NCBI GenBank assembly: GCA_030040455.1
Contig: JASHTR010000423.1
Coordinates: forward strand, 1-11,183
DNA: 11,183 bases
Direction: 5' to 3'
Source of the DNA: Terriglobia bacterium
GTDB taxonomy: Bacteria > Acidobacteriota > Terriglobia > UBA7540
Positions 1-11,183 of the stretch are shown here, piece by piece (positions within the stretch are counted from its first letter, which is position 1; every line of letters begins with the position of its first letter). Under the pieces are notes generated by a model, which did no database searches, was not told the DNA's origin, and worked only from the letters and a program-made list of their open reading frames with translations. A program made the position numbers and the translations under genes.

Positions 1-1094
1 ATGCTAGCGGCTGGCAGGTGGCGGCAGATGCGAATCTGGCGGGGGAAACCTACCCTGACCAGAGCTTGTACCCTTCCAACAGTGTGCCGGGCCTCGTCAG
101 ACGTATCAACAGTGCTTTCAAGCGTGAAGACGAAAAGCAGCACCTTACCGGCCGAGAGGGCACCTATTGGTTCGCACCAATCGTAGCCGACGCTGAAGCG
201 GGTTTTGGCGGCTGCCTGAATGCCTTCGAATTGATGAAGGAAATGATTGAAGCGGGGGCAGCAGGAGTTCACTTCGAGGACCAACTCTCCTCCGCAAAGA
301 AATGCGGACATCTGGGCGGGAAGGTTCTGGTTCCAACCAGCGAGTTTACTCAAAAACTGACCGCCGCGCGCTTAGCCGCCGACACGATGGACATCCCCAC
401 CATCCTTATAGCCCGGACGGACGCCAAGAGCGCCAAGCTCCTTACCAACAACATCGACCCGGCGGACCAACCCTTTCTAACCGGACAGCGGACCCCCGAA
501 GGGTTCTTTGTGGTGCGGGGTGGTCTTGAGGCAGCCATCGCGCGAGGACTGGCCTACGCCGAGTATGCAGACATGCTATGGTTCGAAACGTCGGAGCCGA
601 ACCTCGAGGACGCGCGCGAGTTCGCCAGAGCAATCCACTCGACGTTCCCAGGAAAACTCTTGGCCTACAACTGCTCACCTTCTTTTCACTGGGAAAAGAA
701 TCTCGACAGCGCTACCATTGCGAAGTTTCAGGCTGAACTGGCAGCATGGGGATACAAATTCCAGTTCATCACCCTGGCGGGGTTCCATGCTCTTAATCAT
801 GGCACGTTCGAACTTGCCGCCGCCTATGCTCGGGAGGGAATGCCTGCTTACGTTCATCTTCAGCGGCAGGAATTTGAAAGTGAGCTCGCCGGATACAAAG
901 CGGCAAAGCATCAAGCCTTTGTGGGTGTTGGATATTTTGATGAAGTTGCCCGCCTGGTTGGCGGAGGAACATCATCAACGCTTGCGCTCGATGGATCAAC
1001 TGAGGAGGCGCAGTTTGCAGCATGTGAGCCGGTTTCTCCGGTCGCTGGTGGGGCCGGCCAGTCCACCGGCAGAGCATTGGCACGACCCTCCTAA
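1..1094 (+). CDS. aceA: Isocitrate lyase, 5'-truncated by the window edge
   Basis: Cleaves isocitrate to glyoxylate and succinate in the cytoplasm, the first step of the glyoxylate shunt used for growth on acetate or fatty acids. Reading starts at base 3. The first visible residues, [11 protein letters not shown], match the family about 90 residues in, so the true start lies upstream; the GTG at base 18 is internal. The catalytic-loop motif KKCGH is at visible residues 99-103, with the active-site Cys codon at 303-305. Other family blocks follow: [24 protein letters not shown] and GSTEEAQF. Family members normally end at or just after the last block. Here about 25 further residues, rich in Ala, Gly, Ser and Pro, run to the TAA at 1092-1094. 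The family call is very secure. This is primary metabolism and probably marks the flank of the biosynthetic cluster rather than part of it. Confidence 0.96.
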
Positions 1095-1124
1095 AGATCA
1101 TCTTATCTACTCTTTTTAAACCTT

Positions 1125-2531
1125 TTGGACCACCCTATAACCTTCGACCGTTCGGCCGGCATCATCGAAGACAAAGCCCAATTGCATAAGCATGTGTTAG
1201 CTGATTATTACCGGTGCCTCACGGACCAAGTTCCGTTTCTGCCGGCAGTCAAATCCACGATGCAGGAAGGGTACTTTCGGTTCGGCGCGGATACGATCTG
1301 CTATGGACAGCTCTCCTACAAGGATGCAGCTCGGAGCCCGCTGATGCAGTTAGCCGATGCTCTCGAAGAAGTGGCAGTGGAAGCGGAAGCGGAAGGGATC
1401 AAACTCCCCTTCAACCCCAGCGAGGTGGTCGAAAATCTGCGGCGCGAGCGCTATGCGGCTCATTTCCGCAAAGAAGGACAAGTTTTTAATGAAATTTTGC
1501 GGAAGGCATACTACTTTCTGCGGCCGTGCCTGGGCGTTTCCGTGCGCCGGCACCTCCAAAAAATGCGCCTGCGCGGGTGGAGTGAAATCAGCTTCCCGGC
1601 TTGGCCCGTCGACACCACGGTCGAGCGCATCCATCAGAAATTGCTGGCGTTATCTCTTGAAGCGCAGGGTGTACAAAGACTTCCTTTCATATGGTTTTGG
1701 CCGGAAGGTTTTATGAGTTGTGCCATCATCACCCACGACGTAGAAAGTTCCCTGGGCTGGGGCTTCTGCCGCCGTTTGATGGACCTGAACGAATCCTTTG
1801 AATTTCGTAGCTCCTTTCAGGTGGTGCCGGAGAACCGCTATTCGATTTCAAAAAGCTTTCTGCAAGATATTGAAGATCGCGGTTTCGAGGTCAACATTCA
1901 TGACCTGAACCACGATGGGCGACTTTATGCTGAACGCGCGGAGTTTCTGCGCCGGGCAAAACGCATCAACAGTTACGCGCGTGAATATGACGCTGCAGGA
2001 TTCCGTTCCGGTGTCCTCTACCGAAACGCGGACTGGTACGATGCGCTCGAGTTTTCCTATGATATGTCGTTTCCCAACGTAGCTCACCTCGACCCGCAAC
2101 GTGGCGGCTGTTGCACAGTGATGCCCTACTTTATCGGCAAGATCGTTGAGCTTCCCGTAACCTGCACGCAAGACTATACGCTCTTTCATATTCTTGGCAA
2201 TTACTCCATCGATCTATGGAAAAAGCAGATCGCTTTGATCATGAAGAACCACGGCCTGATCAGCCTCATTGTTCACCCTGATTACATTCAGGAGCAGCGA
2301 GCTCAGGCGACCTACAAAAATCTGCTCAGTTACCTTTCCGATCTACGTGTGAAGGGCAGCATCTGGGCTCCCCTGCCGAAGGACGTGGCGGCTTGGTGGA
2401 GAGAGCGAAGCAAAATGGAGTTGGTATATGAAGGCGGTAAATGGCGCATCGAGGGAGCCGGCAAGGAGCGGGCTTGCATCGCTTATGCCGCGCGAGTTGG
2501 AAATACGGTGACTTACAGCCTGGAGCGTTGA
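1125..2531 (+). CDS. NodB-like polysaccharide-deacetylase-fold protein
   Basis: A 468-residue protein if begun at TTG 1125. The start is uncertain: there is no convincing Shine-Dalgarno, and GTG 1194 or ATG 1260 are alternatives. The C-terminal half carries the carbohydrate-esterase-4 pattern: THDVE (203-207) for the metal-binding Asp strand, HDLNH (259-263) as the His-x3-His metal motif, AGFRSG (291-296) for the Arg loop, and VHPDYI (383-388) for the final His. Classical members read TFDDG and RxPxG, so this is a divergent branch, and activity on N-acetylated sugars cannot be assumed. The first ~190 residues are a helical, charged extension of unknown role. No signal peptide or membrane span is evident. 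It lies 30 bp after aceA in the same frame and 46 bp before the methyltransferase, so co-transcription is plausible. Fold assignment is good; substrate is unknown. Confidence 0.75.
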   Translation: MDHPITFDRSAGIIEDKAQLHKHVLADYYRCLTDQVPFLPAVKSTMQEGYFRFGADTICYGQLSYKDAARSPLMQLADALEEVAVEAEAEGIKLPFNPSEVVENLRRERYAAHFRKEGQVFNEILRKAYYFLRPCLGVSVRRHLQKMRLRGWSEISFPAWPVDTTVERIHQKLLALSLEAQGVQRLPFIWFWPEGFMSCAIITHDVESSLGWGFCRRLMDLNESFEFRSSFQVVPENRYSISKSFLQDIEDRGFEVNIHDLNHDGRLYAERAEFLRRAKRINSYAREYDAAGFRSGVLYRNADWYDALEFSYDMSFPNVAHLDPQRGGCCTVMPYFIGKIVELPVTCTQDYTLFHILGNYSIDLWKKQIALIMKNHGLISLIVHPDYIQEQRAQATYKNLLSYLSDLRVKGSIWAPLPKDVAAWWRERSKMELVYEGGKWRIEGAGKERACIAYAARVGNTVTYSLER

Positions 2532-2577
2532 AAACGAAGGCAAGCTCGTCTCATTGCACAGTTCGGGTGCGATAGCA

Positions 2578-3297
2578 ATGGTAGAGATCTCCGGGAAAGT
2601 GCTGGATCGGAACATATACGCCGATGGGGAATACCTGGAAAGAAATCCGCTATGGCACGCGGATGAATCTCCTTTTAAAGTCGTTCAAATTCTCCGAATG
2701 TTACAGATCCAGCGGCTTCATCCCAACACGATCTGTGAGGTCGGATGCGGTGCCGGAGAAGTTCTAAAACTGTTGCAGGAGAGGATGGACAAAACCTGCT
2801 GTTTTTGGGGTTACGACATCTCGCCCCAGGCCCTGGAAATATGCAAAGGTAAGGCAAACGAAAACCTTCAGTTCAAACTCGCGGACCTCAGTCAGGAGGA
2901 AAACACCTTCTTCGACTTGATTCTGGTTCTGGATGTCATCGAGCACGTCGAGGACTACTTCGGCTTTTTAAAGGGAATCCATCAGAAGAGTCATTTGAAG
3001 ATTTTTCATTTCCCCCTGGACCTTAGCGCACAGGCTGTGCTTCGCAAACGCGGCTTGCTTAAACGTCGGGAACTCTACGGCCATATCCAGTATTTCACCA
3101 AAGAGACAGCCCTCGAGACTCTCAAAGACGTTGGGTATGAGCTCCTAAACTATTTCTATACCCCTCGATGTATCGAACTCGCGAAGGAGAGCATCCAGAA
3201 ATTGGCTATATTGCCGAGGAAGATGTGTTTTGCGATCAATGAAGATCTGACAGCTCGAATCCTCGGCGGATACAGCTTATTGGTCTTGGCCAGGTGA
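2578..3297 (+). CDS. Class I SAM-dependent methyltransferase
   Basis: A 239-residue protein from ATG 2578. A TTG 24 bp upstream is possible but has no better ribosome site. It transfers a methyl group from S-adenosylmethionine to an unidentified acceptor. SAM-binding motif I is EVGCGAGE (54-61), the acidic residue ending strand beta-2 is Asp80 in WGYDIS, and the post-motif block is DVIEHVED (119-126), typical of the UbiE/Methyltransf_11-23 families. The C-terminal part has HIQYFTKETALETL (169-182), a conserved-looking helix that probably lines the acceptor site. The protein is soluble, with no membrane segment. Its position just after the NodB-like gene hints at a shared substrate such as a sugar or glycolipid. 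It could equally tailor the NRPS-PKS product encoded to the right. Family is secure; acceptor and O-, N- or C-specificity are not determinable. Confidence 0.85.
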   Translation: MVEISGKVLDRNIYADGEYLERNPLWHADESPFKVVQILRMLQIQRLHPNTICEVGCGAGEVLKLLQERMDKTCCFWGYDISPQALEICKGKANENLQFKLADLSQEENTFFDLILVLDVIEHVEDYFGFLKGIHQKSHLKIFHFPLDLSAQAVLRKRGLLKRRELYGHIQYFTKETALETLKDVGYELLNYFYTPRCIELAKESIQKLAILPRKMCFAINEDLTARILGGYSLLVLAR

Positions 3298-3437
3298 TTC
3301 AAGTTATGAGGGCAGAAAGCAGTCAGCGGAATCAAGACAAGCCATGAGGCACAATGCCTACTCCTCGTCTCGAATTTCACGATCAGCACATATCCTTAAT
3401 TCTTTTTCCCTCAAACCATGGTGAAGGTAGGTAGACA
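3298..3437 (+). promoter_or_regulatory. 140-bp spacer before the flavoprotein gene
   Basis: This is the longest gap in the window. It holds the AAGGTAGG ribosome site at 3424-3431 and a pyrimidine-rich stretch near 3396-3410. No convincing sigma-70 -35/-10 pair was found. The gap size suggests a fresh promoter for the flavoprotein, but this is inferred only from spacing. Confidence 0.25.
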
Positions 3438-3441
3438 ATGA
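3418..3441 (+). other. Possible 7-codon leader ORF overlapping the flavoprotein start
   Basis: ATG 3418 opens a short frame encoding MVKVGRQ whose TGA (3439-3441) overlaps the flavoprotein ATG (3438-3440) as ATGA. Translation of such a peptide could couple to the start of the flavoprotein. No ribosome site is visible before ATG 3418 and chance occurrence is quite likely. Confidence 0.2.
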
Positions 3442-4685
3442 CGTCCTGTGACGCGGTCATTATCGGTGCCGGGCCTTATGGTCTTTCTGCAGCCGCTCAT
3501 CTGCGCACGGTCAAGGGACTCGAATGTCGCGTCTTCGGCGATCCCATGTCCTTCTGGAACCGCAACATGCCGGTGGGCATGCAACTCCGTTCCGGCTGGG
3601 CAGCAACGTACATTGCCGATCCAAAACGATTGCTTACATTGGAAGCGTATCAGCAGGCATCAGGCAACCACTTTACAACCCCAGTGCCTCTCGATCAATT
3701 TGTGCAGTATGGTTTGTGGTTCCAGCGCCAGGCAGTACCTGATCTTGACTATCGCAATGTTGAGTTGGTCGAGTCGGAACCAGGAGGCTTTCGGCTTACA
3801 CTTCGGGATGGTGAGATGCTCCGTACGCGCCGCGTCATCATCGCGTGCGGTATCCAGCCGTTCGCTTGGCGTCCTTTGGAGTTCCGAGGTCTCCCCTCGT
3901 CGCTTGTGACCCACACTTCCGAACATCATGATTTTGGGGGGGGGGCCGGCAAAACGGTGCTCGTAATTGGCGGTGGGCAAAGCGCACTCGAATCCGCCGC
4001 TCTACTTCACGAAGCAGGAGCGGAGGTTGAAGTCATCGCGAGAGCGAGCAGCATTCAATGGCTTCAAGGATGGGCTTCCACAACGCTTCATTGGCGCATG
4101 GGCAAATTGACTGCGCGCCTTCTCTATGCGCCCACCGACGTGGGCCCTGCCGGCATCAGCCAAATTCTGGCACGACCGGATTTGTTCCGGAAGTTGCCTC
4201 GCGGTCTCCAAAACGTTCTTTGGAAGCGAGCCGTCCGGCCAGCGGGCGCACGCTGGCTGGTGAGGCGGCTTGAGGGCGTGCCGCTCACCCTTGGACGTTC
4301 GGTCATTTCGGTTGCCACAGCAGGCGAGCGCGTAGCGTTGCAGCTCAGCGATGGCACCCGCCGGAAAGCGCATCATGTGCTTCTGGGGACAGGTTTTCGT
4401 GTGGACATTTCAAAGTACAGATTATTGGGCCCAAGTATCCTGAAGTCCATCCGTCGCATCAATGGCTACCCTCAGCTCAAGGGAGGTCTTGAGACGTCGG
4501 TTCCCGGTTTGCACATCCTGGGCGCGCCAGCCGCCTGGAGCTTCGGCCCCTTGATGCAATTCGTTTCCGGCGCTCGCTACGCTTCCCAATCACTGCTGCG
4601 CTCGATCGCCGGGCGAAATCCCGCGTTAGAAGATCTCTATCAAGAACCGGTATGCCCGGATGAGGCATGGTCGGCCCTCCCGTAG
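3438..4685 (+). CDS. FAD- and NAD(P)H-dependent flavoprotein monooxygenase-like oxidoreductase
   Basis: A 415-residue protein of two-dinucleotide-fold architecture. The FAD motif GAGPYG is at 10-15, IACGIQP (135-141) closes the first fold, the NAD(P)H motif GGGQSA is at 178-183, and an LGTGF element lies at 316-320. The last is comparable to the ATGY-type motif of N-hydroxylating and flavin-containing monooxygenases. This layout fits a class B monooxygenase relative that oxidises an amine, sulfur or ketone, though the substrate is unknown. ATG 3438 is preceded by AAGGTAGG six bases away. A G10 run at 3936-3945 encodes Gly167-Gly169 in a loop just before the second Rossmann fold; gaining or losing one G would truncate the enzyme. 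The gene is followed convergently by the PPTase. It is a candidate tailoring oxidase for the cluster. Family confidence is high and the specific reaction low. Confidence 0.85.
   Translation: MTSCDAVIIGAGPYGLSAAAHLRTVKGLECRVFGDPMSFWNRNMPVGMQLRSGWAATYIADPKRLLTLEAYQQASGNHFTTPVPLDQFVQYGLWFQRQAVPDLDYRNVELVESEPGGFRLTLRDGEMLRTRRVIIACGIQPFAWRPLEFRGLPSSLVTHTSEHHDFGGGAGKTVLVIGGGQSALESAALLHEAGAEVEVIARASSIQWLQGWASTTLHWRMGKLTARLLYAPTDVGPAGISQILARPDLFRKLPRGLQNVLWKRAVRPAGARWLVRRLEGVPLTLGRSVISVATAGERVALQLSDGTRRKAHHVLLGTGFRVDISKYRLLGPSILKSIRRINGYPQLKGGLETSVPGLHILGAPAAWSFGPLMQFVSGARYASQSLLRSIAGRNPALEDLYQEPVCPDEAWSALP
3936..3945 (+). repeat. G10 homopolymer inside the flavoprotein gene
   Basis: Ten consecutive G bases follow GATTTT and precede CCGGC. 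They supply three Gly codons (residues 167-169) and the first base of an Ala codon. Runs this long are uncommon in coding DNA of this composition and are prone to slippage during replication or sequencing. As written, the frame is intact and both nucleotide-binding folds on either side read correctly. Confidence 0.95.
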
Positions 4686-4721
4686 CTCTGGCGCGGTAGT
4701 CAGGACTCTTTCAAACAAAAT

Positions 4722-4767
4722 GAAGGGCGACGGTGTTCAGATGCGACCTGCGATAAAGCCGCCCTTC
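4722..4767 (-). terminator. Likely intrinsic terminator of the PPTase gene
   Basis: An exact 8-bp inverted repeat, GAAGGGCG (4722-4729) and CGCCCTTC (4760-4767), lies between the two convergent genes. Read on the minus strand, the second arm is followed at once by the T-rich ATTTTGTTTGA, the order expected of a rho-independent terminator about 30-80 bases after the PPTase stop. The 30-base loop is long for a classical terminator, which lowers confidence. On the plus strand no T-run follows. Confidence 0.4.
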
Positions 4768-4799
4768 GTATCGCTAAGTGGAAAGGCCGTTCTTATCGA

Positions 4800-5543
4800 T
4801 CACAGTACGGGCGTCCATTCGAAACCTCGAAAACGCCAGCCTCTTCCCTCGCCAGCCAGAGCTGCAACATATCGCGCCGCTGGCCGAAACGAATGCAGAG
4901 TCCAGTTGACATTTCCAGGTCCGCAAAGTTCCTCAGAAGCGGCTGCCGAAAGTGAAACATCAAAACTATCAAGCGGTATCTCGAGGCCTACACCGCTGGC
5001 TTTTACGTATGCCTCCTTTTTGGTCCAGCAAGTGAAAAATCCATCGACCCGTAAGCCCGGTGGCAACGCACGCAGCGCCGCAACCTCGCGTGGGGAGAAA
5101 AAGCGCTCTGCTACTTCCATGCCGCCGAAATCGTGCCTGAGCAGCTCGATATCAACGCCAACCTCCCGTCCTTTAGCGAAAGCATATAACGCCATGCCAT
5201 GCGAGTGCGCCAGGTTAAAACGCATCCAGGGGGCACAATCCTTGAGAGCCGGTTTACCGCGAGGACCAGAGTCGAACTTCAACGCGGCCGGTGGTTGCCC
5301 CAAGTAAGCGCCGAGGAGCTCACGCAAAATGCCTCGTGCAGCAACAAAGCTCTCTCGATCTCGCTGAAATACGAAACGCGCCGCACGTGATATTTCATCC
5401 GGTGCAAGTGTCGCTTCTAAACGTGGAAGCTCTTCCGGCCTCGGGCTAAGAAGGGCGCGCCAGACGTGAACCTCATCGCTTGAGAGACTAAGCTCTGCCG
5501 GTGCCGCCGGCCAAACCAGAGACGAAAATCCCGCGTCGGTCAT
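4800..5543 (-). CDS. Sfp-type 4'-phosphopantetheinyl transferase
   Basis: A 247-residue enzyme that moves the phosphopantetheine arm of coenzyme A onto the conserved Ser of carrier-protein domains, converting apo-PCP and apo-ACP to the active holo form. All three family signatures are present: FNLAHSHG (109-116), VGVDIE (128-133, with Asp131 and Glu133 as Mg2+ ligands) and WTKKEAYVKASG (173-184, with Glu177 as the third acidic residue). Length is typical of the Sfp/EntD class rather than the ~120-residue AcpS class. The start ATG at 5541-5543 has AAGAGG (minus strand, 5554-5559) ten bases upstream. It is the only gene on the minus strand, divergent from the NRPS-PKS operon and convergent with the flavoprotein. 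Its job is presumably to arm the carrier domain encoded at 10215-10225 and those of the downstream PKS. Confidence 0.95.
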   Translation of the reverse strand: MTDAGFSSLVWPAAPAELSLSSDEVHVWRALLSPRPEELPRLEATLAPDEISRAARFVFQRDRESFVAARGILRELLGAYLGQPPAALKFDSGPRGKPALKDCAPWMRFNLAHSHGMALYAFAKGREVGVDIELLRHDFGGMEVAERFFSPREVAALRALPPGLRVDGFFTCWTKKEAYVKASGVGLEIPLDSFDVSLSAAASEELCGPGNVNWTLHSFRPAARYVAALAGEGRGWRFRGFEWTPVL

Positions 5544-5653
5544 AGCAAAACAACCTCTTGCTTCACACGCTGAACGTCTTGCAAAAGAGCGAACGCCCTC
5601 CGCAACCTCAAAAGGGAAGCAGAGGCATTGAACGATAGGAAGTTAATAAAGCC
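5544..5653. promoter_or_regulatory. Divergent intergenic region between PPTase and the biosynthetic operon
   Basis: These 110 bases must hold the transcription start of the PPTase on the minus strand and probably that of the four-gene plus-strand operon. Visible elements are the PPTase ribosome site (5554-5559, minus) and AGGAAG (5637-5642, plus), eleven bases before ATG 5654. No -35/-10 pair close to sigma-70 consensus could be picked out on either strand, so an activator or alternative sigma factor may be needed. The promoter role is inferred from gene orientation. Confidence 0.4.
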
Positions 5654-7246
5654 ATGGAGAACACCGCTTATTACTTAAAGTCGAACGTGATGGCGGAGCC
5701 GCTGGTGGACAGTTGGTACGCGTGGGCGCACCTGATTCCGCCCGCGACCGCAGCCAGGAACCTCACTGAGCGCCACCTGCGGATTATGGAATCTTACATC
5801 GAGTCGCCCGAAACGCACCAGGCCGCGGTGAAGAACCCGGCATTACTCGGAGGACCGTTTATGGACTTCGACCGTAACCGCGTCGAAGACGTGAAACGCC
5901 TGCGTGACCGGACTCTGGAAGAGCGCGACCACCTCGTTCGTCTTTCTCGCGCCATCGGGCAGCTCGACGCGCTGCTGAGGGAAAAGGCTACGGGCTACGG
6001 CCTGGAGTCGCTTTATGCGGAAGTGCCAGCCTGCCTCCAGGGGTATGTCGAGCTGGTCTACGATCTGAACTCTCACCCCTCGTTCCGGCTCATCGAGCCT
6101 CTGCTTTATAAAAGCGGATTTTATGATCCCTCCCTGCAGAGCGTGATGCTTTCGGAAATTCGCGGCGATGACCGCCCCTTCGTCTTGAGCACACCGCGGC
6201 TGGACAAGGATGGCTCCGTCCAATTACCGATCCCGTTTGCCAGCCGACAACTGGATGCGCTCTTTCGAATGAAGACCGAGCCCTCTTCGCGCGCCTCCAT
6301 TTTAGATACGCTGGGCCTCGACGGCGAGGGCTCTGAGCGGTTCCGTTCATTTTTGACCACGGAGCCGCCGCCGCCTTACTCCCAATACGATGGGGCCGGG
6401 GCACGCTGGCGCTATTTTGGACATGCGTGCATTCTGCTTGAAACACGCGAAGTCAGCGTGCTCCTGGACCCGGTGCTTAGCTATACCTATGAGACGGACA
6501 TTTCACGCTATACCTACGACGACCTGCCTGAGGTGATTGACTACGCGCTGATCACACACAATCACCAGGATCATATTCTATTTGAAACGCTGCTGCAGCT
6601 TCGGCATCGCATTCGAAACATTGTAGTGCCGCGGAACGGCGGCGGCGCACTACAGGACCCTTCGCTGAAGCTTCTGCTCAAGCAATGCGGTTTCCAAAGC
6701 GTGATCGAACTGTCTGAAATGGAGGAGGTTGCGTTTGACCGCGGAACGATTACGGCGGTGCCGTTTCTAGGCGAACACGGTGACCTCAACGTGTTGACCA
6801 AGTCCGCCTACCTCCTGCGGTTGGGCAGGCACTCACTGCTGTTCGCAGCCGACTCCTGTAATATTTCGCCCAAGGTGTATGAGCACGTACATAGAGAAAT
6901 TGGCGACGTGGACGCGCTGTTCCTGGGCATGGAATGCGATGGCGCTCCCCTCTCGTGGATTTATGGCCCCTTGCTGACCCAGCGGCTGGATCGTGCCATG
7001 GATCGGTCGCGCCGGCTCGCCGGGTCGAATTACGAGCGCGCCCTAGCTATATTGGACCAATTGCGCTCGAAGGAAGTGTACGTGTACGCCATGGGGCAGG
7101 AGCCCTGGCTCAATTACGTGATGAGCATCAAATACACCGATAAGTCAAATCCCATCATCCACTCGGATCATTTGATTGAGACTTGCCGGGAGCGTGGGAT
7201 CACGGCGGAGCGCCTTTTCGGAGAAAAGGAGATCTTTCTGCCGTGA
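5654..7246 (+). CDS. CmlA-type di-iron beta-hydroxylase acting on PCP-bound amino acids
   Basis: A 530-residue protein with a ~240-residue N-terminal domain and a C-terminal metallo-beta-lactamase fold, beginning near RYFGHACILLE (253-263). That matches the size and layout of CmlA, the chloramphenicol-pathway oxygenase that beta-hydroxylates an amino acid held on an NRPS carrier protein. The metal-binding motif is HNHQDH (302-307: His302, His304, Asp306, His307), with Glu374 in GEHGD and Asp400 in FAADSC. These lie three residues before the CmlA ligands as I recall them (H305, H307, D309, H310, E377, D403). MAMGQEP-like sequence (AMGQEPW, 479-485) and a late His503 are further candidate conserved points. 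A plain hydrolase is the alternative, but full length and position beside an A-PCP gene favour the oxygenase. AGGAAG precedes the ATG. It heads the operon and overlaps the next gene by four bases. Confidence 0.85.
   Translation: MENTAYYLKSNVMAEPLVDSWYAWAHLIPPATAARNLTERHLRIMESYIESPETHQAAVKNPALLGGPFMDFDRNRVEDVKRLRDRTLEERDHLVRLSRAIGQLDALLREKATGYGLESLYAEVPACLQGYVELVYDLNSHPSFRLIEPLLYKSGFYDPSLQSVMLSEIRGDDRPFVLSTPRLDKDGSVQLPIPFASRQLDALFRMKTEPSSRASILDTLGLDGEGSERFRSFLTTEPPPPYSQYDGAGARWRYFGHACILLETREVSVLLDPVLSYTYETDISRYTYDDLPEVIDYALITHNHQDHILFETLLQLRHRIRNIVVPRNGGGALQDPSLKLLLKQCGFQSVIELSEMEEVAFDRGTITAVPFLGEHGDLNVLTKSAYLLRLGRHSLLFAADSCNISPKVYEHVHREIGDVDALFLGMECDGAPLSWIYGPLLTQRLDRAMDRSRRLAGSNYERALAILDQLRSKEVYVYAMGQEPWLNYVMSIKYTDKSNPIIHSDHLIETCRERGITAERLFGEKEIFLP
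7226..7231 (+). promoter_or_regulatory. Ribosome binding site that sets the sulfotransferase start
   Basis: AAGGAG lies inside the last codons of the beta-hydroxylase, eleven bases before GTG 7243. That GTG overlaps the upstream TGA as GTGA. The pairing of a strong Shine-Dalgarno with a 4-base overlap argues for starting at 7243 rather than at TTG 7183 or ATG 7300. Confidence 0.65.
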
Positions 7247-8373
7247 GGACACCCAACTTCGCAGCCGAAAAAGGGCCGAGAAGCGTGACGAGTCAGGCGA
7301 TGGGAAGGCACGCGAAGGCACCCGTCTTTATTTTGGGTTGTCCACGGTCGGGTACGACTCTCTTGTACCACATGCTCCTATCCTCCGGAAACTTTGCCGT
7401 TTACTTGGCGGAAAGCCATGTGTTTGACAAGATCGCACCCGCCTTTGGAAATCTCAGCTCGCTAAAAAACCGTGAAAAATTGATGGATGCCTGGCTGCAG
7501 AGCGACTATTTCCGGAGATCGGGCTTGGAAGCTAAGGAAATTCGGCCCAAGGTTTTATCGGACTGCAGGAATGCCGGTGATTTCCTGCGAATCGTCATGG
7601 AAAGCGTAGCGTCCCGGCAGGGTGTCGAGCGCTGGGCAGAAAATACTCCGGCGCATCTGGTCTTTATCCCGCAGATCAAGAAGACCATCCCGGATGCGCT
7701 GATCGTTCACATCATTCGGGATGGGAGAGACGTCGCGGTATCGATGAACCGGATGGAATGGGGCTCTCCTTTCTCATGGGACAGAAAACACGGCTTGATG
7801 GTGTCCGGACTTCGCTGGGAATGGATGGTTCAAAAGGGCAGGGAGTACGGCTGGAGGCTTGGCCCCGACTACATGGAGGTACACTACGAGGAACTCACGC
7901 AATACCCTCGAGAAACACTGGCAAGACTGGGAGCCTTCATCGGCCACGACCTGAACTACGAGCAAATCCTGCAGAATGCCATCGGTACCGTAAGCGAGCC
8001 GAACACATCGTTCAGGAACGGCGCCCGCAACGGCAATTTTAGGCCCATCGGGCGGTGGAAGCTTCTTGGCGATCAAGAAAGGACACGATTGGAGCGCCTG
8101 CTAGGCGCACGCCTGCAGGAGTTGGGTTACCCGGCAAACAGGTCTGAGGGGCTGGACCTCAGAGCGTGGAGGCTCCGGAAATTTTACACGCTCTACCGCG
8201 AAATCAAGCTGCGCCTCCGGCAGAGCCCGCTGAGCAAATTTTTGATCCACAAGGAAAGGATTTTGCGCGCCGGCATATTGAGCGAGCAGGAATCTCGCTG
8301 GAAGGTTCTTGCTGAGAGACCATTTTGCACCGCGCACACCCCAGAGGCACATAAGGGTAGCGCTCATTGCTAA
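7243..8373 (+). CDS. PAPS-dependent sulfotransferase
   Basis: A 376-residue cytosolic-type sulfotransferase that moves a sulfuryl group from 3'-phosphoadenosine-5'-phosphosulfate (PAPS) to a hydroxyl or amine. The 5'-phosphosulfate loop is GCPRSGTTLL (32-41), and the 3'-phosphate motif is IIRDGRDVAVS (157-167), with Arg159 and the Ser at 167 in the expected places. PIGRWKLL (268-275) matches the C-terminal PAPS-contacting Gly-Arg-Trp segment seen in this superfamily. After that the protein has a basic, helical tail of ~60 residues (305-376) of unknown use. GTG 7243 was chosen for its GTGA overlap and the AAGGAG before it; ATG 7300, still upstream of the PAPS loop, is possible. Placed between the beta-hydroxylase and the starter NRPS, it may act on a carrier-bound hydroxy-amino acid or on the finished product. 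The family is secure and the acceptor unknown. Confidence 0.9.
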   Translation: MRTPNFAAEKGPRSVTSQAMGRHAKAPVFILGCPRSGTTLLYHMLLSSGNFAVYLAESHVFDKIAPAFGNLSSLKNREKLMDAWLQSDYFRRSGLEAKEIRPKVLSDCRNAGDFLRIVMESVASRQGVERWAENTPAHLVFIPQIKKTIPDALIVHIIRDGRDVAVSMNRMEWGSPFSWDRKHGLMVSGLRWEWMVQKGREYGWRLGPDYMEVHYEELTQYPRETLARLGAFIGHDLNYEQILQNAIGTVSEPNTSFRNGARNGNFRPIGRWKLLGDQERTRLERLLGARLQELGYPANRSEGLDLRAWRLRKFYTLYREIKLRLRQSPLSKFLIHKERILRAGILSEQESRWKVLAERPFCTAHTPEAHKGSAHC

Positions 8374-8387
8374 CCTCTTCGGTACAA

Positions 8388-8407
8388 CAGAAGCCGGAAG
8401 GCTTCTG
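8388..8407 (+). other. Perfect 8-bp stem with GGAA (GNRA-type) tetraloop in the sulfotransferase-NRPS spacer
   Basis: CAGAAGCC (8388-8395) and GGCTTCTG (8400-8407) pair fully around a GGAA loop, 14 bases after the sulfotransferase stop. There is no T-run after it, so it is not a standard rho-independent terminator. It could stabilise or process the operon mRNA, or damp readthrough between genes. If the NRPS actually starts at TTG 8367, the hairpin would lie in coding sequence. Confidence 0.55.
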
Positions 8408-8468
8408 CTGCCACGCTGACCACACAGGAGTTGTGTTTAGTTCCGGGAAAGGTGCGTGCCGCTTAGTT

Positions 8469-10439
8469 ATGATGACACTCAAATCCTGCAGTTTGGAAGC
8501 CCTCACGGACCAGGAAGTTTGCAGACTGGCTCTGCCGGAGCCCTTGCGGGCATGGAACGAGACGGCCACAAACTATCCGTGCGGCAAGAGCGTTGCTGAG
8601 CTCTTTGAAGAGGTTGTGGCGGCCTATCCTGAAAACATCGCTGTCACGTTCAGCGGTCAGCAGCTCACCTATCGAGAGTTGAACCAGCGAGCCAACCACC
8701 TGGCGCACCGGCTGCGGCGGATGGGCGTGGGCCCCGAGACGATGGTGGGGTGCTGCTTCGAGCGCTCTATGGAGCTGATCGTAGCGCTGGTGGGTGTGCT
8801 GAAGGCCGGTGGTGCTTACGTGCCCTTCGATTGTTCCTATCCTCCGGAGCGCCTCAGTTTTCTTTTAGAAGATACGCGAACTCCGGTAATGCTCACGCAG
8901 AAATCGCTGGTCTCGACGGCCTTGGCAGGGCGCAAGCTCCCTTGCATTTGCCTGGACGAACCAGGTCCCGCCGCGCCAGATACCGATAAATTGAACCCCA
9001 CGCCGGCGGGGGTTCCTGCGAGCCTTGCATACGTCATGTACACCTCCGGATCCACAGGGGTTCCCAAAGGAGTGATGGTGGAGAATCGCGCCATTGTCCG
9101 GCTGGTTCGCAACACCAACTTCTGCAAGTTTGGCGCGAGTGAAGTCTTCCTGCAGTTTGCTCCTATTTCTTTCGACGCGTCGACGCTGGAGGTTTGGGGG
9201 CCGTTGTTGAATGGCGGCCGCTTGGTCGTGATGTCGCCTGGCGCTGCCTCCCTTGAGGAGCTTGGCCGGGTTATTCGGGAACAAGGCATCACAACACTCT
9301 GGCTGACTGCGGGGCTTTTTAACCTGATGGTTGAACAGCGTCTTGAAGATCTGCGGACGGTGCGGCAGCTTCTCGCGGGCGGAGAGGTTTTATCGCCACG
9401 TCATGTGCGGATGGTGCTTGATAACCTTCCTGATTGCTGCCTCATTAACGGATACGGCCCTACCGAAAACACAACCTTCACTTGCTGCTACACCATGCGG
9501 TCTGGAGATCACGTCCCAGAGCCGGTGCCGATCGGCCGGCCGATTTCGAATACCCGTGTGTATATCCTTGACGAGCACATGCGTCCTGTGATGCCCAGAG
9601 AAGCAGGGGAACTTTACGCCGCGGGAGACGGGGTAGCTCGCGGTTATCTGAACAATCCTCTCGCTACGACCGAGCGCTTTTTGCCTGACCCATTTGCAAC
9701 GGCTGGCAGTGCTCGGATGTATCGCACGGGCGACATGGCTCGCTGGCGGGACGACGGCGTTGTTGAATTCCTCGGACGGGCCGACGACCAGGTGAAAATC
9801 CTGGGCCACCGAATCGAGCCCGGCGAGGTTGAGGCGGTGCTTGGCACCCACCCGGGCGTGAAGCAGGTGTGTGTGGTGACTCGCTCGGATGAAAGCGGCG
9901 GCAAGCGACTGATTGCATATTTCGTTCCAGCAGACAACTCCGGCGTCCAACCGTGTGTGTTGCGGGAGTTCCTCCTGGCAAAACTTCCACCGTACATGAT
10001 CCCAGCTTCAATCGTGCGGGTGGACTCGATGCCGCTTTCGCCGAACGGAAAGGTGGACCGGGCAGCAATGCCGATCCCCGTCTTCACGACTCAAAGCGAG
10101 CCCAGCGCAGGTCCTCCCCCAACGGAGATCGAACGGACTATCGCCGATTTATGGAAGCAGGTTCTCCAGATTGATCGCGTGGGTGTTGACGACAACTTCT
10201 TCGATGCGGGTGGCGATTCGCTGCTTCTGGTTGCAGTACACTCGAAGCTCCAGAAAGTCCTGCAAACGGAGATTCCGGTCACCGATCTCTTCGAGTTCGC
10301 GACGATCCGAACGCTAGCCCGGCACCTGAGTGAGAAGAGACCTGCCCCGGCTCCCTTTACCGACGTCGAGCGACAGGCCCGCAAACAGCGGGAGGCTTTT
10401 GCCCGGGAGCGGCAAGGCCGGACGGGTGTGGCACGATGA
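8469..10439 (+). CDS. NRPS starter module: adenylation domain plus peptidyl carrier protein
   Basis: A 656-residue protein that selects and adenylates an amino acid and tethers it to its own carrier domain. Adenylation motifs run in order: LKAGGAYVPFD (A2, 111-121), YTSGSTGVPKG (A3, 191-201), NGYGPTE (A5, 327-333), YRTGD (A7, 418-422), GRADDQVKILGHRIEPGEVE (A8, 436-455) and NGKVDR (A10, 526-531, catalytic Lys528). The carrier motif DNFFDAGGDSLLL has its phosphopantetheine Ser at 584. Aligning by eye to GrsA gives the ten-residue code DALWLGGTFK, eight of ten identical to the valine code DAFWIGGTFK. There is no condensation domain, although residues ~10-40 look like a C-to-A linker. The last ~25 residues are charged and helical, as at NRPS-to-PKS junctions. 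ATG 8469 is preferred, with a poorly spaced GGGAAAGG. TTG 8367, with AAGGGT upstream and overlapping the previous stop, is a real alternative. Confidence 0.93.
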   Translation: MMTLKSCSLEALTDQEVCRLALPEPLRAWNETATNYPCGKSVAELFEEVVAAYPENIAVTFSGQQLTYRELNQRANHLAHRLRRMGVGPETMVGCCFERSMELIVALVGVLKAGGAYVPFDCSYPPERLSFLLEDTRTPVMLTQKSLVSTALAGRKLPCICLDEPGPAAPDTDKLNPTPAGVPASLAYVMYTSGSTGVPKGVMVENRAIVRLVRNTNFCKFGASEVFLQFAPISFDASTLEVWGPLLNGGRLVVMSPGAASLEELGRVIREQGITTLWLTAGLFNLMVEQRLEDLRTVRQLLAGGEVLSPRHVRMVLDNLPDCCLINGYGPTENTTFTCCYTMRSGDHVPEPVPIGRPISNTRVYILDEHMRPVMPREAGELYAAGDGVARGYLNNPLATTERFLPDPFATAGSARMYRTGDMARWRDDGVVEFLGRADDQVKILGHRIEPGEVEAVLGTHPGVKQVCVVTRSDESGGKRLIAYFVPADNSGVQPCVLREFLLAKLPPYMIPASIVRVDSMPLSPNGKVDRAAMPIPVFTTQSEPSAGPPPTEIERTIADLWKQVLQIDRVGVDDNFFDAGGDSLLLVAVHSKLQKVLQTEIPVTDLFEFATIRTLARHLSEKRPAPAPFTDVERQARKQREAFARERQGRTGVAR

Positions 10440-11183
10440 GTTCTTCCGCAAACCTCAACCCTGGGCTCGATGGCGTCGCCGTGATTGGAATGGCGGGGCG
10501 CTTTCCCAGCGCGCAAAGCGTATCTGAGTTCTGGCGCAACCAGATCAACGGGATCGAGGGAATTTCACATTTTCGTGTTGAGGACCTGGAAGTGCCGGAC
10601 GGGGCACGACTCGCCTGCAATCCTCATTACGTTCTCGCGCGCTCGATCCTGGAAGGCGTCGATCTTTTCGATGCTGAGTTCTTCGGCATGTATCCGCGCG
10701 AAGCTGAGCTGACGGATCCGCAGCAGCGCCTGTTTCTCGAGTGTTGCTGGCAGGCATTTGAAGATGCGGGTTACGACCCCTTCGGTTTTCCGGGGCAGGT
10801 GGCTGTCTATGCCGGAAGCAGCACAAGCACCTATTTCCTCTCTCAGCTCTGTGCGAACCCGGACTTCATTCAGAAGTTCACCGGCGGCTACCAGGTGGGA
10901 AGCTATCCGGAAATGATGGGCAACAATCTGGACTTCCTTGCAACGCGGGTCTCCTACAAGCTGAACCTTCGGGGACCGAGCTTTACAATGCAGGCAGGCT
11001 GCTCCACGTCACTGCTGTGCGTTGCGCAGGCTTGCCAATCCCTGCTCACGTATCAAAGCGATATGGCACTTGCGGGCGGCGCTTCAATCACCCTCCCGCA
11101 AAAGCGTGGTTCTTGCTACCAAGAGGGTGGCATGGTGTCTCCAGATGGGCACTGCCGCACTTTTGACGCGAACGCGCAAGGGA
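10436..11183 (+). CDS. Type I polyketide synthase, N-terminal ketosynthase domain, cut by the window edge
   Basis: The first 249 residues of a modular PKS. ATG 10436 overlaps the NRPS TGA as ATGA, so translation is coupled. The ketosynthase starts almost at once (GVAVIGMAGRFP, 13-24), with DPQQRLFLECCWQAFEDAG (94-112) and the active-site Cys189 in MQAGCSTSL. The His residues that complete the catalytic triad lie beyond the edge. The family consensus before the Cys is usually DTACSxSL, so AGC is a variant. With no N-terminal docking segment, the ketosynthase probably receives the aminoacyl group straight from the upstream PCP and condenses it with a malonyl-type extender. The acyltransferase and later domains cannot be seen, so chain length and extender choice are unknown. 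KS identity is secure; its being an NRPS-accepting KS is inferred from position. Confidence 0.95.
   Translation, partial: MSSSANLNPGLDGVAVIGMAGRFPSAQSVSEFWRNQINGIEGISHFRVEDLEVPDGARLACNPHYVLARSILEGVDLFDAEFFGMYPREAELTDPQQRLFLECCWQAFEDAGYDPFGFPGQVAVYAGSSTSTYFLSQLCANPDFIQKFTGGYQVGSYPEMMGNNLDFLATRVSYKLNLRGPSFTMQAGCSTSLLCVAQACQSLLTYQSDMALAGGASITLPQKRGSCYQEGGMVSPDGHCRTFDANAQG

What the first reader, a model, noticed from the sequence alone, without database searches (positions are those of the whole stretch)
5654..10439. CmlA-type beta-hydroxylase paired with a valine-like A-PCP loading module
The metallo-beta-lactamase-fold protein has the full two-domain length of CmlA, with HxHxDH, Glu374 and Asp400 at a constant three-residue offset from recalled CmlA ligands. 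Its operon partner is a free-standing A-PCP whose code resembles valine. Together they predict a carrier-bound beta-hydroxylated branched amino acid (for valine, a tertiary alcohol) as a polyketide starter. CmlA itself acts on an aromatic residue, so an aliphatic tertiary position would widen the chemistry.
Basis: partly seen in the sequence, partly recalled or inferred. Interest (0 to 1): 0.75.

Follow-up and report, generated by a model that had tools for sequence, protein, structure and literature searches.

The report
Valine-hydroxylating starter unit, CmlA type
A bacterium carries an iron enzyme of the chloramphenicol-pathway type next to a valine-loading protein that probably feeds a hybrid polyketide-peptide assembly line; the enzyme type is known, but this setting, with an aminating polyketide module and a sulfotransferase, did not turn up in the papers searched.

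Summary
Window 5654-7246 encodes a full two-domain CmlA-type protein (Pfam CmlA_N 305 bits; model superposes on FrsH at 1.4 A over 529 residues and on CmlA at 1.6 A over 515), with six ligand residues conserved in 82 of 82 aligned rows. Its partner at 8367-10439 is a free-standing A-PCP with code DALWLGGTFK, one residue from a published valine code. A sulfotransferase gene (about 7243-8373), not in the finding's title, lies between them. In the enzyme's clade (7 rows, window included) the neighbouring A domain could be read in 6; all 6 are valine- or isoleucine-like. In the window and its two nearest relatives the A-PCP gene overlaps a type I PKS by 4 bases; in relatives, and on a second contig of the same genome, that PKS carries an aminotransferase domain. 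Best reading: carrier-bound valine is beta-hydroxylated, extended with malonate and transaminated to a 3,4-diamino-5-hydroxy-5-methylhexanoyl unit. The novelty argument is weaker than stated: FrsH hydroxylates carrier-bound leucine and reportedly accepts isoleucine, and a 2025 paper proposes valine hydroxylation by a relative. No activity was tested.

The parts
5654..7246 (+). CmlA-type diiron monooxygenase (530 aa): CmlA_N domain plus metallo-beta-lactamase-fold domain
   Evidence: AlphaFold model pLDDT 92.1, superposed on FrsH and CmlA
6557..6574 (+). HNHQDH metal-binding motif (residues 302-307)
   Evidence: H302, H304, D306, H307 in 82 of 82 rows
6773..6775 (+). Glu374, counterpart of CmlA Glu377
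   Evidence: 82 of 82 rows
6851..6853 (+). Asp400, counterpart of CmlA Asp403 (number recalled)
   Evidence: 82 of 82 rows
7243..8373 (+). sulfotransferase (376 aa if started at GTG 7243, whose start overlaps the CmlA stop as GTGA)
   Evidence: Sulfotransfer_3 96 bits; start candidates; a 376-aa database protein 99% identical
8367..10439 (+). free-standing A-PCP protein, valine-like code DALWLGGTFK; the true start is probably later, 8433 or 8469
8604..9650 (+). adenylation core domain (AMP-binding)
10137..10328 (+). peptidyl carrier domain
10436..11183 (+). start of the type I PKS gene: ketosynthase N-terminal part, runs off the contig; probably continues on contig C474 of the same genome
4800..5543 (-). 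phosphopantetheinyl transferase, diverging from the CmlA gene; could activate the carrier domains
   Evidence: ACPS 63 bits, best NCBIfam match HetI below its cut-off; homologue in the L004 region
3438..4685 (+). FAD/NAD-dependent oxidoreductase; homologues within about 12 kb upstream of the PKS in 4 of the 5 relatives whose PKS was seen (not L005)
1125..2531 (+). protein without a Pfam match at E 0.001, upstream of the oxidoreductase here and in the same 4 of 5 relatives

Best explanation
The pair is a loading unit that prepares a beta-hydroxylated branched amino acid on a carrier protein. The A domain adenylates L-valine (inferred from the code) and loads it on its PCP, which the neighbouring phosphopantetheinyl transferase has primed (inferred). 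The CmlA-type enzyme, with a diiron site (ligands shown, iron inferred), hydroxylates the beta carbon of valyl-S-PCP to the tertiary alcohol (inferred). The PCP then hands the starter to the ketosynthase encoded by the overlapping next gene (adjacency shown, transfer inferred). The PKS adds malonate and its aminotransferase domain turns the beta-ketone into an amine (domains shown in relatives and on contig C474; activity inferred), giving a 3,4-diamino-5-hydroxy-5-methylhexanoyl unit that passes to a glycine-type NRPS module (module shown in relatives only). The sulfotransferase may sulfate the product or a nearby surface polymer; its role is open.
Against: No activity was tested. FrsH and CmlA lie outside the window's clade, on long branches, so their substrates do not transfer directly; 25 of 36 labelled relatives sit beside A domains of other codes. 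A codes predict the loaded residue, not what the hydroxylase accepts. In L020, L021 and L023 the pair is not next to the PKS (26 kb away in L021, on other contigs in the other two), and in L023's genome another A-PCP (code DMYNFGVVWK) sits directly before the PKS, so the pair may feed another carrier there. The join of C51 to C474 is inferred; about 155 residues are missing between them. The genome is 77% complete.
Confidence: 0.6

Rival explanations
1. The CmlA-type enzyme hydroxylates the residue on this A-PCP, but the product is not (only) a PKS starter: it goes to a carrier without its own A domain at the end of the NRPS, or to another acceptor.
For: In the genomes of L020, L021 and L023 the protein after the PKS is C-C-PCP-TE without an A domain (Pfam; place), and own contig C523 ends an NRPS with C-PCP-TE, so one PCP must be loaded in trans. 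In these three genomes the pair is not next to the PKS; in L021 it is flanked by sugar-nucleotide genes.
Against: In window, L004 and L005 the A-PCP gene overlaps the PKS gene by 4 bases, and no C-PCP-TE protein was seen after the PKS in the stretches examined for L004 and L005 (that contig C192 continues L004 is inferred).
Confidence: 0.2
2. The hydroxyl is an intermediate: the sulfotransferase sulfonates beta-hydroxyvalyl-PCP to make a leaving group, and elimination gives dehydrovaline or the amine closes to a dimethyl-aziridine.
For: The sulfotransferase gene lies inside the operon, with a start candidate overlapping the CmlA stop. Weak match to a PKS sulfotransferase domain, 4gox, E 4e-4 (that it is the Ols domain and activates a beta-hydroxyl is recalled). 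The CrpA paper proposes hydroxyvaline on the way to dehydrovaline. Two contig lengths (567421 and 159994) occur in both lists of best 120 hits, CmlA homologues at 78-79% and sulfotransferase homologues at 61-64%, which hints at co-residence.
Against: 0 of the 6 relatives' fetched CmlA loci has the sulfotransferase. The own genome has a 49% identical copy on C319, and L023's genome a 42% copy on another contig, so this enzyme family also occurs away from the pair. The PDB match is only family level.
Confidence: 0.1
3. The MBL-fold protein is an ordinary hydrolase or thioesterase and does not hydroxylate.
For: Names given by sources are MBL fold metallo-hydrolase or UlaG-like.
Confidence: 0.03

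Closest known systems
FrsH with FrsA (FR900359 pathway; PDB 8a90; PMC7794379)
   Different: FrsA has C, A, T and TE domains and loads leucine; here a bare A-PCP with a valine-like code, upstream of a PKS, with a sulfotransferase gene between
CmlA with CmlP (chloramphenicol pathway; PDB 4jo0, 5kik, 5kil)
   Same: Two-domain architecture and all six ligand residues (221 of 514 aligned residues identical)
   Different: Aromatic substrate p-aminophenylalanine (as told in PMC5061366); no polyketide extension (recalled)
CrpA of cryopeptin (PMC12181424)
   Same: CmlA-like protein proposed to hydroxylate valine
   Different: Proposed only, within an NRPS and toward dehydrovaline; CrpA's sequence was not compared here
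KasD of kasumigamide (PMC5061366)
   Same: CmlA-like protein in an NRPS/PKS cluster
   Different: Proposed substrate is phenylalanine; the PKS module has a KR
Aminotransferase-containing PKS modules of mycosubtilin and microcystin type (recalled)
   Same: KS-AT-ACP-aminotransferase-C order
   Different: Those work on acyl chains (recalled); here the unit upstream is an amino acid, which would give a vicinal diamine

Membership tests
CmlA-type diiron beta-hydroxylases | N-terminal CmlA_N domain fused to an MBL-fold domain | tested here: met
CmlA-type diiron beta-hydroxylases | HxHxDH plus Glu and Asp ligands at the CmlA positions | tested here: met
   82 of 82 rows, including FrsH and CmlA
CmlA-type diiron beta-hydroxylases | binds two irons and hydroxylates carrier-bound aminoacyl groups | not testable with these tools
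   needs purified protein
CmlA-type diiron beta-hydroxylases | encoded with a cognate A-PCP | tested here: met
   same operon here; adjacent free-standing A-PCP in 5 of the 6 other clade rows; in L006 the adjacent ORF is C-A, cut by the contig end. That the pairs are cognate is inferred.
Valine-activating A domains | ten-residue specificity code | tested here: met
   DALWLGGTFK, one change from DALWIGGTFK; the GrsA reference segment was recalled, and the tenth residue K was taken as given, not read
Valine-activating A domains | activates valine in vitro | not testable with these tools
   needs ATP-PPi exchange
FrsA/FrsH system | partner has C, A, T and TE domains and loads leucine | tested here: not met
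   partner has A and PCP domains only; code is valine-like
beta-amino-acid-forming PKS modules | class III aminotransferase domain after the ACP | tested here: met
   L005 and own contig C474; the link of C474 to the window is inferred
Ols/Cur-type sulfotransferase-thioesterase elimination | sulfotransferase domain fused to TE in the PKS (definition recalled) | tested here: not met
   stand-alone ORF with Sulfotransfer domains only

The most novel reading that the evidence does not exclude
A CmlA-type enzyme hydroxylates the tertiary carbon of carrier-bound valine; the coupled sulfotransferase activates that alcohol on the carrier for elimination or ring closure; and the aminotransferase PKS module turns the unit into a vicinal 3,4-diamino acid destined for a product tied to an exosortase-type exopolysaccharide locus of Acidobacteria.
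Probability: 0.08. Interest if true: 0.8.

Novelty: new variant of a known kind. Interest (0 to 1): 0.45.

Why it matters
It gives a compact, soluble test of whether CmlA-type enzymes hydroxylate the tertiary carbon of valine, which the papers seen here only propose (CrpA). The predicted vicinal 3,4-diamino-5-hydroxy building block, and the placing of such a cluster near exopolysaccharide genes in relatives, would be unusual. A valine- or isoleucine-like A domain beside a CmlA-type enzyme needs four changes on the tree, three of them forced by well-supported branches, so the pairing may have arisen more than once.

Tried and rejected
Ordinary MBL hydrolase: rejected on domain, ligands and fold.

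Substrate from the enzyme's own position relative to FrsH or CmlA: not usable; both lie outside the window's clade on long branches, and the tool warns that FrsH joins another long branch. Pocket residues were not compared.

Genomic neighbours of the closest database homologues (best listed 85%) could not be fetched: scans of metagenome contigs are capped at 0. Wider genome samples gave little: 1 of 40 genomes of the order at E 1e-100 and 3 of 396 of the phylum at E 1e-150, the window's own genome included in both.

L006 was first taken as a further pair; its A domain breaks off at the contig end before the code, and contig C190 of its genome proved to carry a different A domain, so it is not counted. 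L027, L031, L036 and L073 were left out of the code scan and tree as near copies. The code scan found 120 A domains by motif in the 78 loci scanned; A domains without the motif were missed. Of 80 rows labelled, 11 were Val/Ile-like, 25 other, 44 without a readable A domain within 3.5 kb; the labels of the window and of the second L022 copy were set by hand.

Paper searches for CmlA, FrsH, hydroxyvaline, dehydrovaline, diiron beta-hydroxylation, Acidobacteria clusters, exosortase with NRPS, and specificity codes cover open-licence PMC only; the CmlA structure paper and the glycopeptide CmlA paper are not held.

The promoter and terminator scan added nothing: 0 promoter-like sites, 13 terminator-like sites against 6.9 in shuffles.
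Full report
What is in the window. The window is contig C51 (positions 1-11183) of a 3.36-Mb genome that is 77% complete. Forward genes: an isocitrate lyase fragment, a protein without Pfam match, a methyltransferase, an FAD/NAD oxidoreductase, the CmlA-type protein, a sulfotransferase, an A-PCP and the start of a type I PKS; a phosphopantetheinyl transferase diverges from the CmlA gene. A start candidate of the sulfotransferase overlaps the CmlA stop as GTGA (7243-7246), and A-PCP and PKS overlap as ATGA (10436-10439), so the four genes look like one operon.

The partner and its substrate. The A domain's code reads DALWLGGTFK (the reference segment was recalled and the final K taken as given). 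Published codes include DALWIGGTFK, named with valine sequences (PMC12283262, section and passages), and DAFWLGGTFK, listed as Val (PMC9113097, passage). The paired A-PCPs of L005, L020, L021 and L023 are valine-like and that of L004 is isoleucine-like by recalled codes.

Does the enzyme belong to this A-PCP? In a tree of 82 rows (quick method) the window's enzyme falls in a 7-row clade (SH-aLRT 98). Of the 7, six have a readable neighbouring A domain and all six are Val/Ile-like; L006 is unreadable. In L020, L021 and L023 the two genes stay side by side though they are not next to the PKS. Of 80 rows labelled, 11 were Val/Ile-like, 25 other and 44 without a readable A domain within 3.5 kb. 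Val/Ile neighbours occur in the window's clade, in L034, in two cyanobacteria (L069, L070) and in two Segetibacter (L067, L080); the tree needs four changes, of which supported branches force three. Against a simple reading, many relatives, above all in Bacteroidota, sit beside other codes; at least 24 of the 120 A domains read in the loci are DLTKxGExG (asparagine-like, recalled). The family is broad, so membership alone does not set the substrate.

The assembly line. L005 (77% identical enzyme) has the A-PCP and then KS-AT-ACP-Aminotran_3-C-A-PCP in one protein of 2703 residues (Pfam on its first 2674). L004 (81%) has the same order up to the C domain, broken by frame changes and unknown bases; contig C192 of its genome probably continues it. 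In the window's own genome, contig C474 carries KS end-AT-ACP-Aminotran_3 at 62% identity to L005's protein, and the missing stretch between C51 and C474 is about 155 residues. The AT has the HAFH motif (malonyl type, recalled). The second A domain reads DILQLGMIWK in L005, C192 and the genomes of L020 and L021, a published glycine code. C523 of the window's genome ends an NRPS with C-PCP-TE and carries two cupin-like genes, one above and one below the Cupin_8 cut-off; homologous C-C-PCP-TE proteins lie directly downstream of the PKS in the genomes of L020, L021 and L023. From these domains the predicted unit is 3,4-diamino-5-hydroxy-5-methylhexanoyl, followed by glycine. Every catalytic step here is inferred.

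The sulfotransferase. It has Sulfotransfer_3 at 96 bits and only weak PDB matches, among them a PKS sulfotransferase domain (4gox, E 4e-4). None of the six relatives' fetched CmlA loci has it; more distant copies lie elsewhere in the own genome (49%), L023's genome (42%) and L021's genome (27% and less). The database holds homologues at 61-64%, and two of their contig lengths also appear in the list of CmlA homologues, which hints at co-residence but is indirect.

Setting. In four of the six relatives exopolysaccharide genes were found on contigs that carry the pair or its PKS: an exosortase in L004, export and chain-length proteins in L005, an ATPase and a tyrosine autokinase on L023's contig, and an asparagine-synthase-like amidotransferase on G438's contig. 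General families (Exosortase_EpsH, Poly_export, Wzz, eps_fam, asn_synth_AEB) score above their cut-offs; the models named for the XrtA/PEP-CTERM system are among the best matches but all lie below theirs. L006 and L021 were not scanned for these genes. Whether the product is tied to the polymer is unknown.

Comparison with print. FrsH hydroxylates carrier-bound leucine, and the authors report that it accepts other substrates including L-Ile (PMC7794379, passages). CrpA is proposed to hydroxylate valine (PMC12181424, section). Chitinopeptins hold beta-OH-Ile and their clusters encode an MBL-fold protein that the authors liken to CmlA (PMC9248904). The idea of an aliphatic substrate is therefore not new; a proven valine case was not found, which cover open-licence papers only.

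Verdict. A well-supported new member of the CmlA family in what looks like a new cluster architecture; the chemistry is plausible and testable, but untested.

Noticed in passing
window 7243-8373: Sulfotransferase gene inside the operon between hydroxylase and A-PCP; absent from the fetched CmlA loci of the six relatives.
   Followed up: partly
L004 1068-1970; L005 194-3992; L152 714-2633; L134 17661-19583: Exosortase-type exopolysaccharide genes on contigs that carry the pair or its PKS in four relatives; XrtA-named models match below their cut-offs.
   Followed up: partly
L102 289-4104 (contig C523 of the window's genome): C-PCP-TE end of an NRPS without an A domain, followed by two cupin-like genes; homologous ends lie next to the PKS in three relatives.
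   Followed up: partly
L004 6746-9439: A second A-PCP-TE protein on the opposite strand, code DVWHFSLVDK, upstream of the CmlA gene.
   Followed up: no
L131 19465-20000 continuing in L150 1-1387 (G440:C441): In L023's genome a different A-PCP (code DMYNFGVVWK) overlaps the PKS start, while the CmlA and valine A-PCP pair lies on another contig.
   Followed up: partly
L021 8949-15321: The CmlA and A-PCP pair is flanked by sugar-nucleotide-type genes: Gfo/Idh dehydrogenase, hexapeptide transferase, DegT aminotransferase.
   Followed up: no
L007, L010, L012, L013, L018, L019: Acidobacterial CmlA-type genes with no hit to the window's A-PCP in the fetched flanks.
   Followed up: no
L006: Enzyme within the clade of acidobacterial sequences but on a contig filed as Xanthobacteraceae: misbinning or transfer.
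   Followed up: no
window 3-1094 and L152 8554-10071: An isocitrate lyase gene lies near the pair in both the window and L023's contig (62% identical), on opposite sides of it.
   Followed up: no
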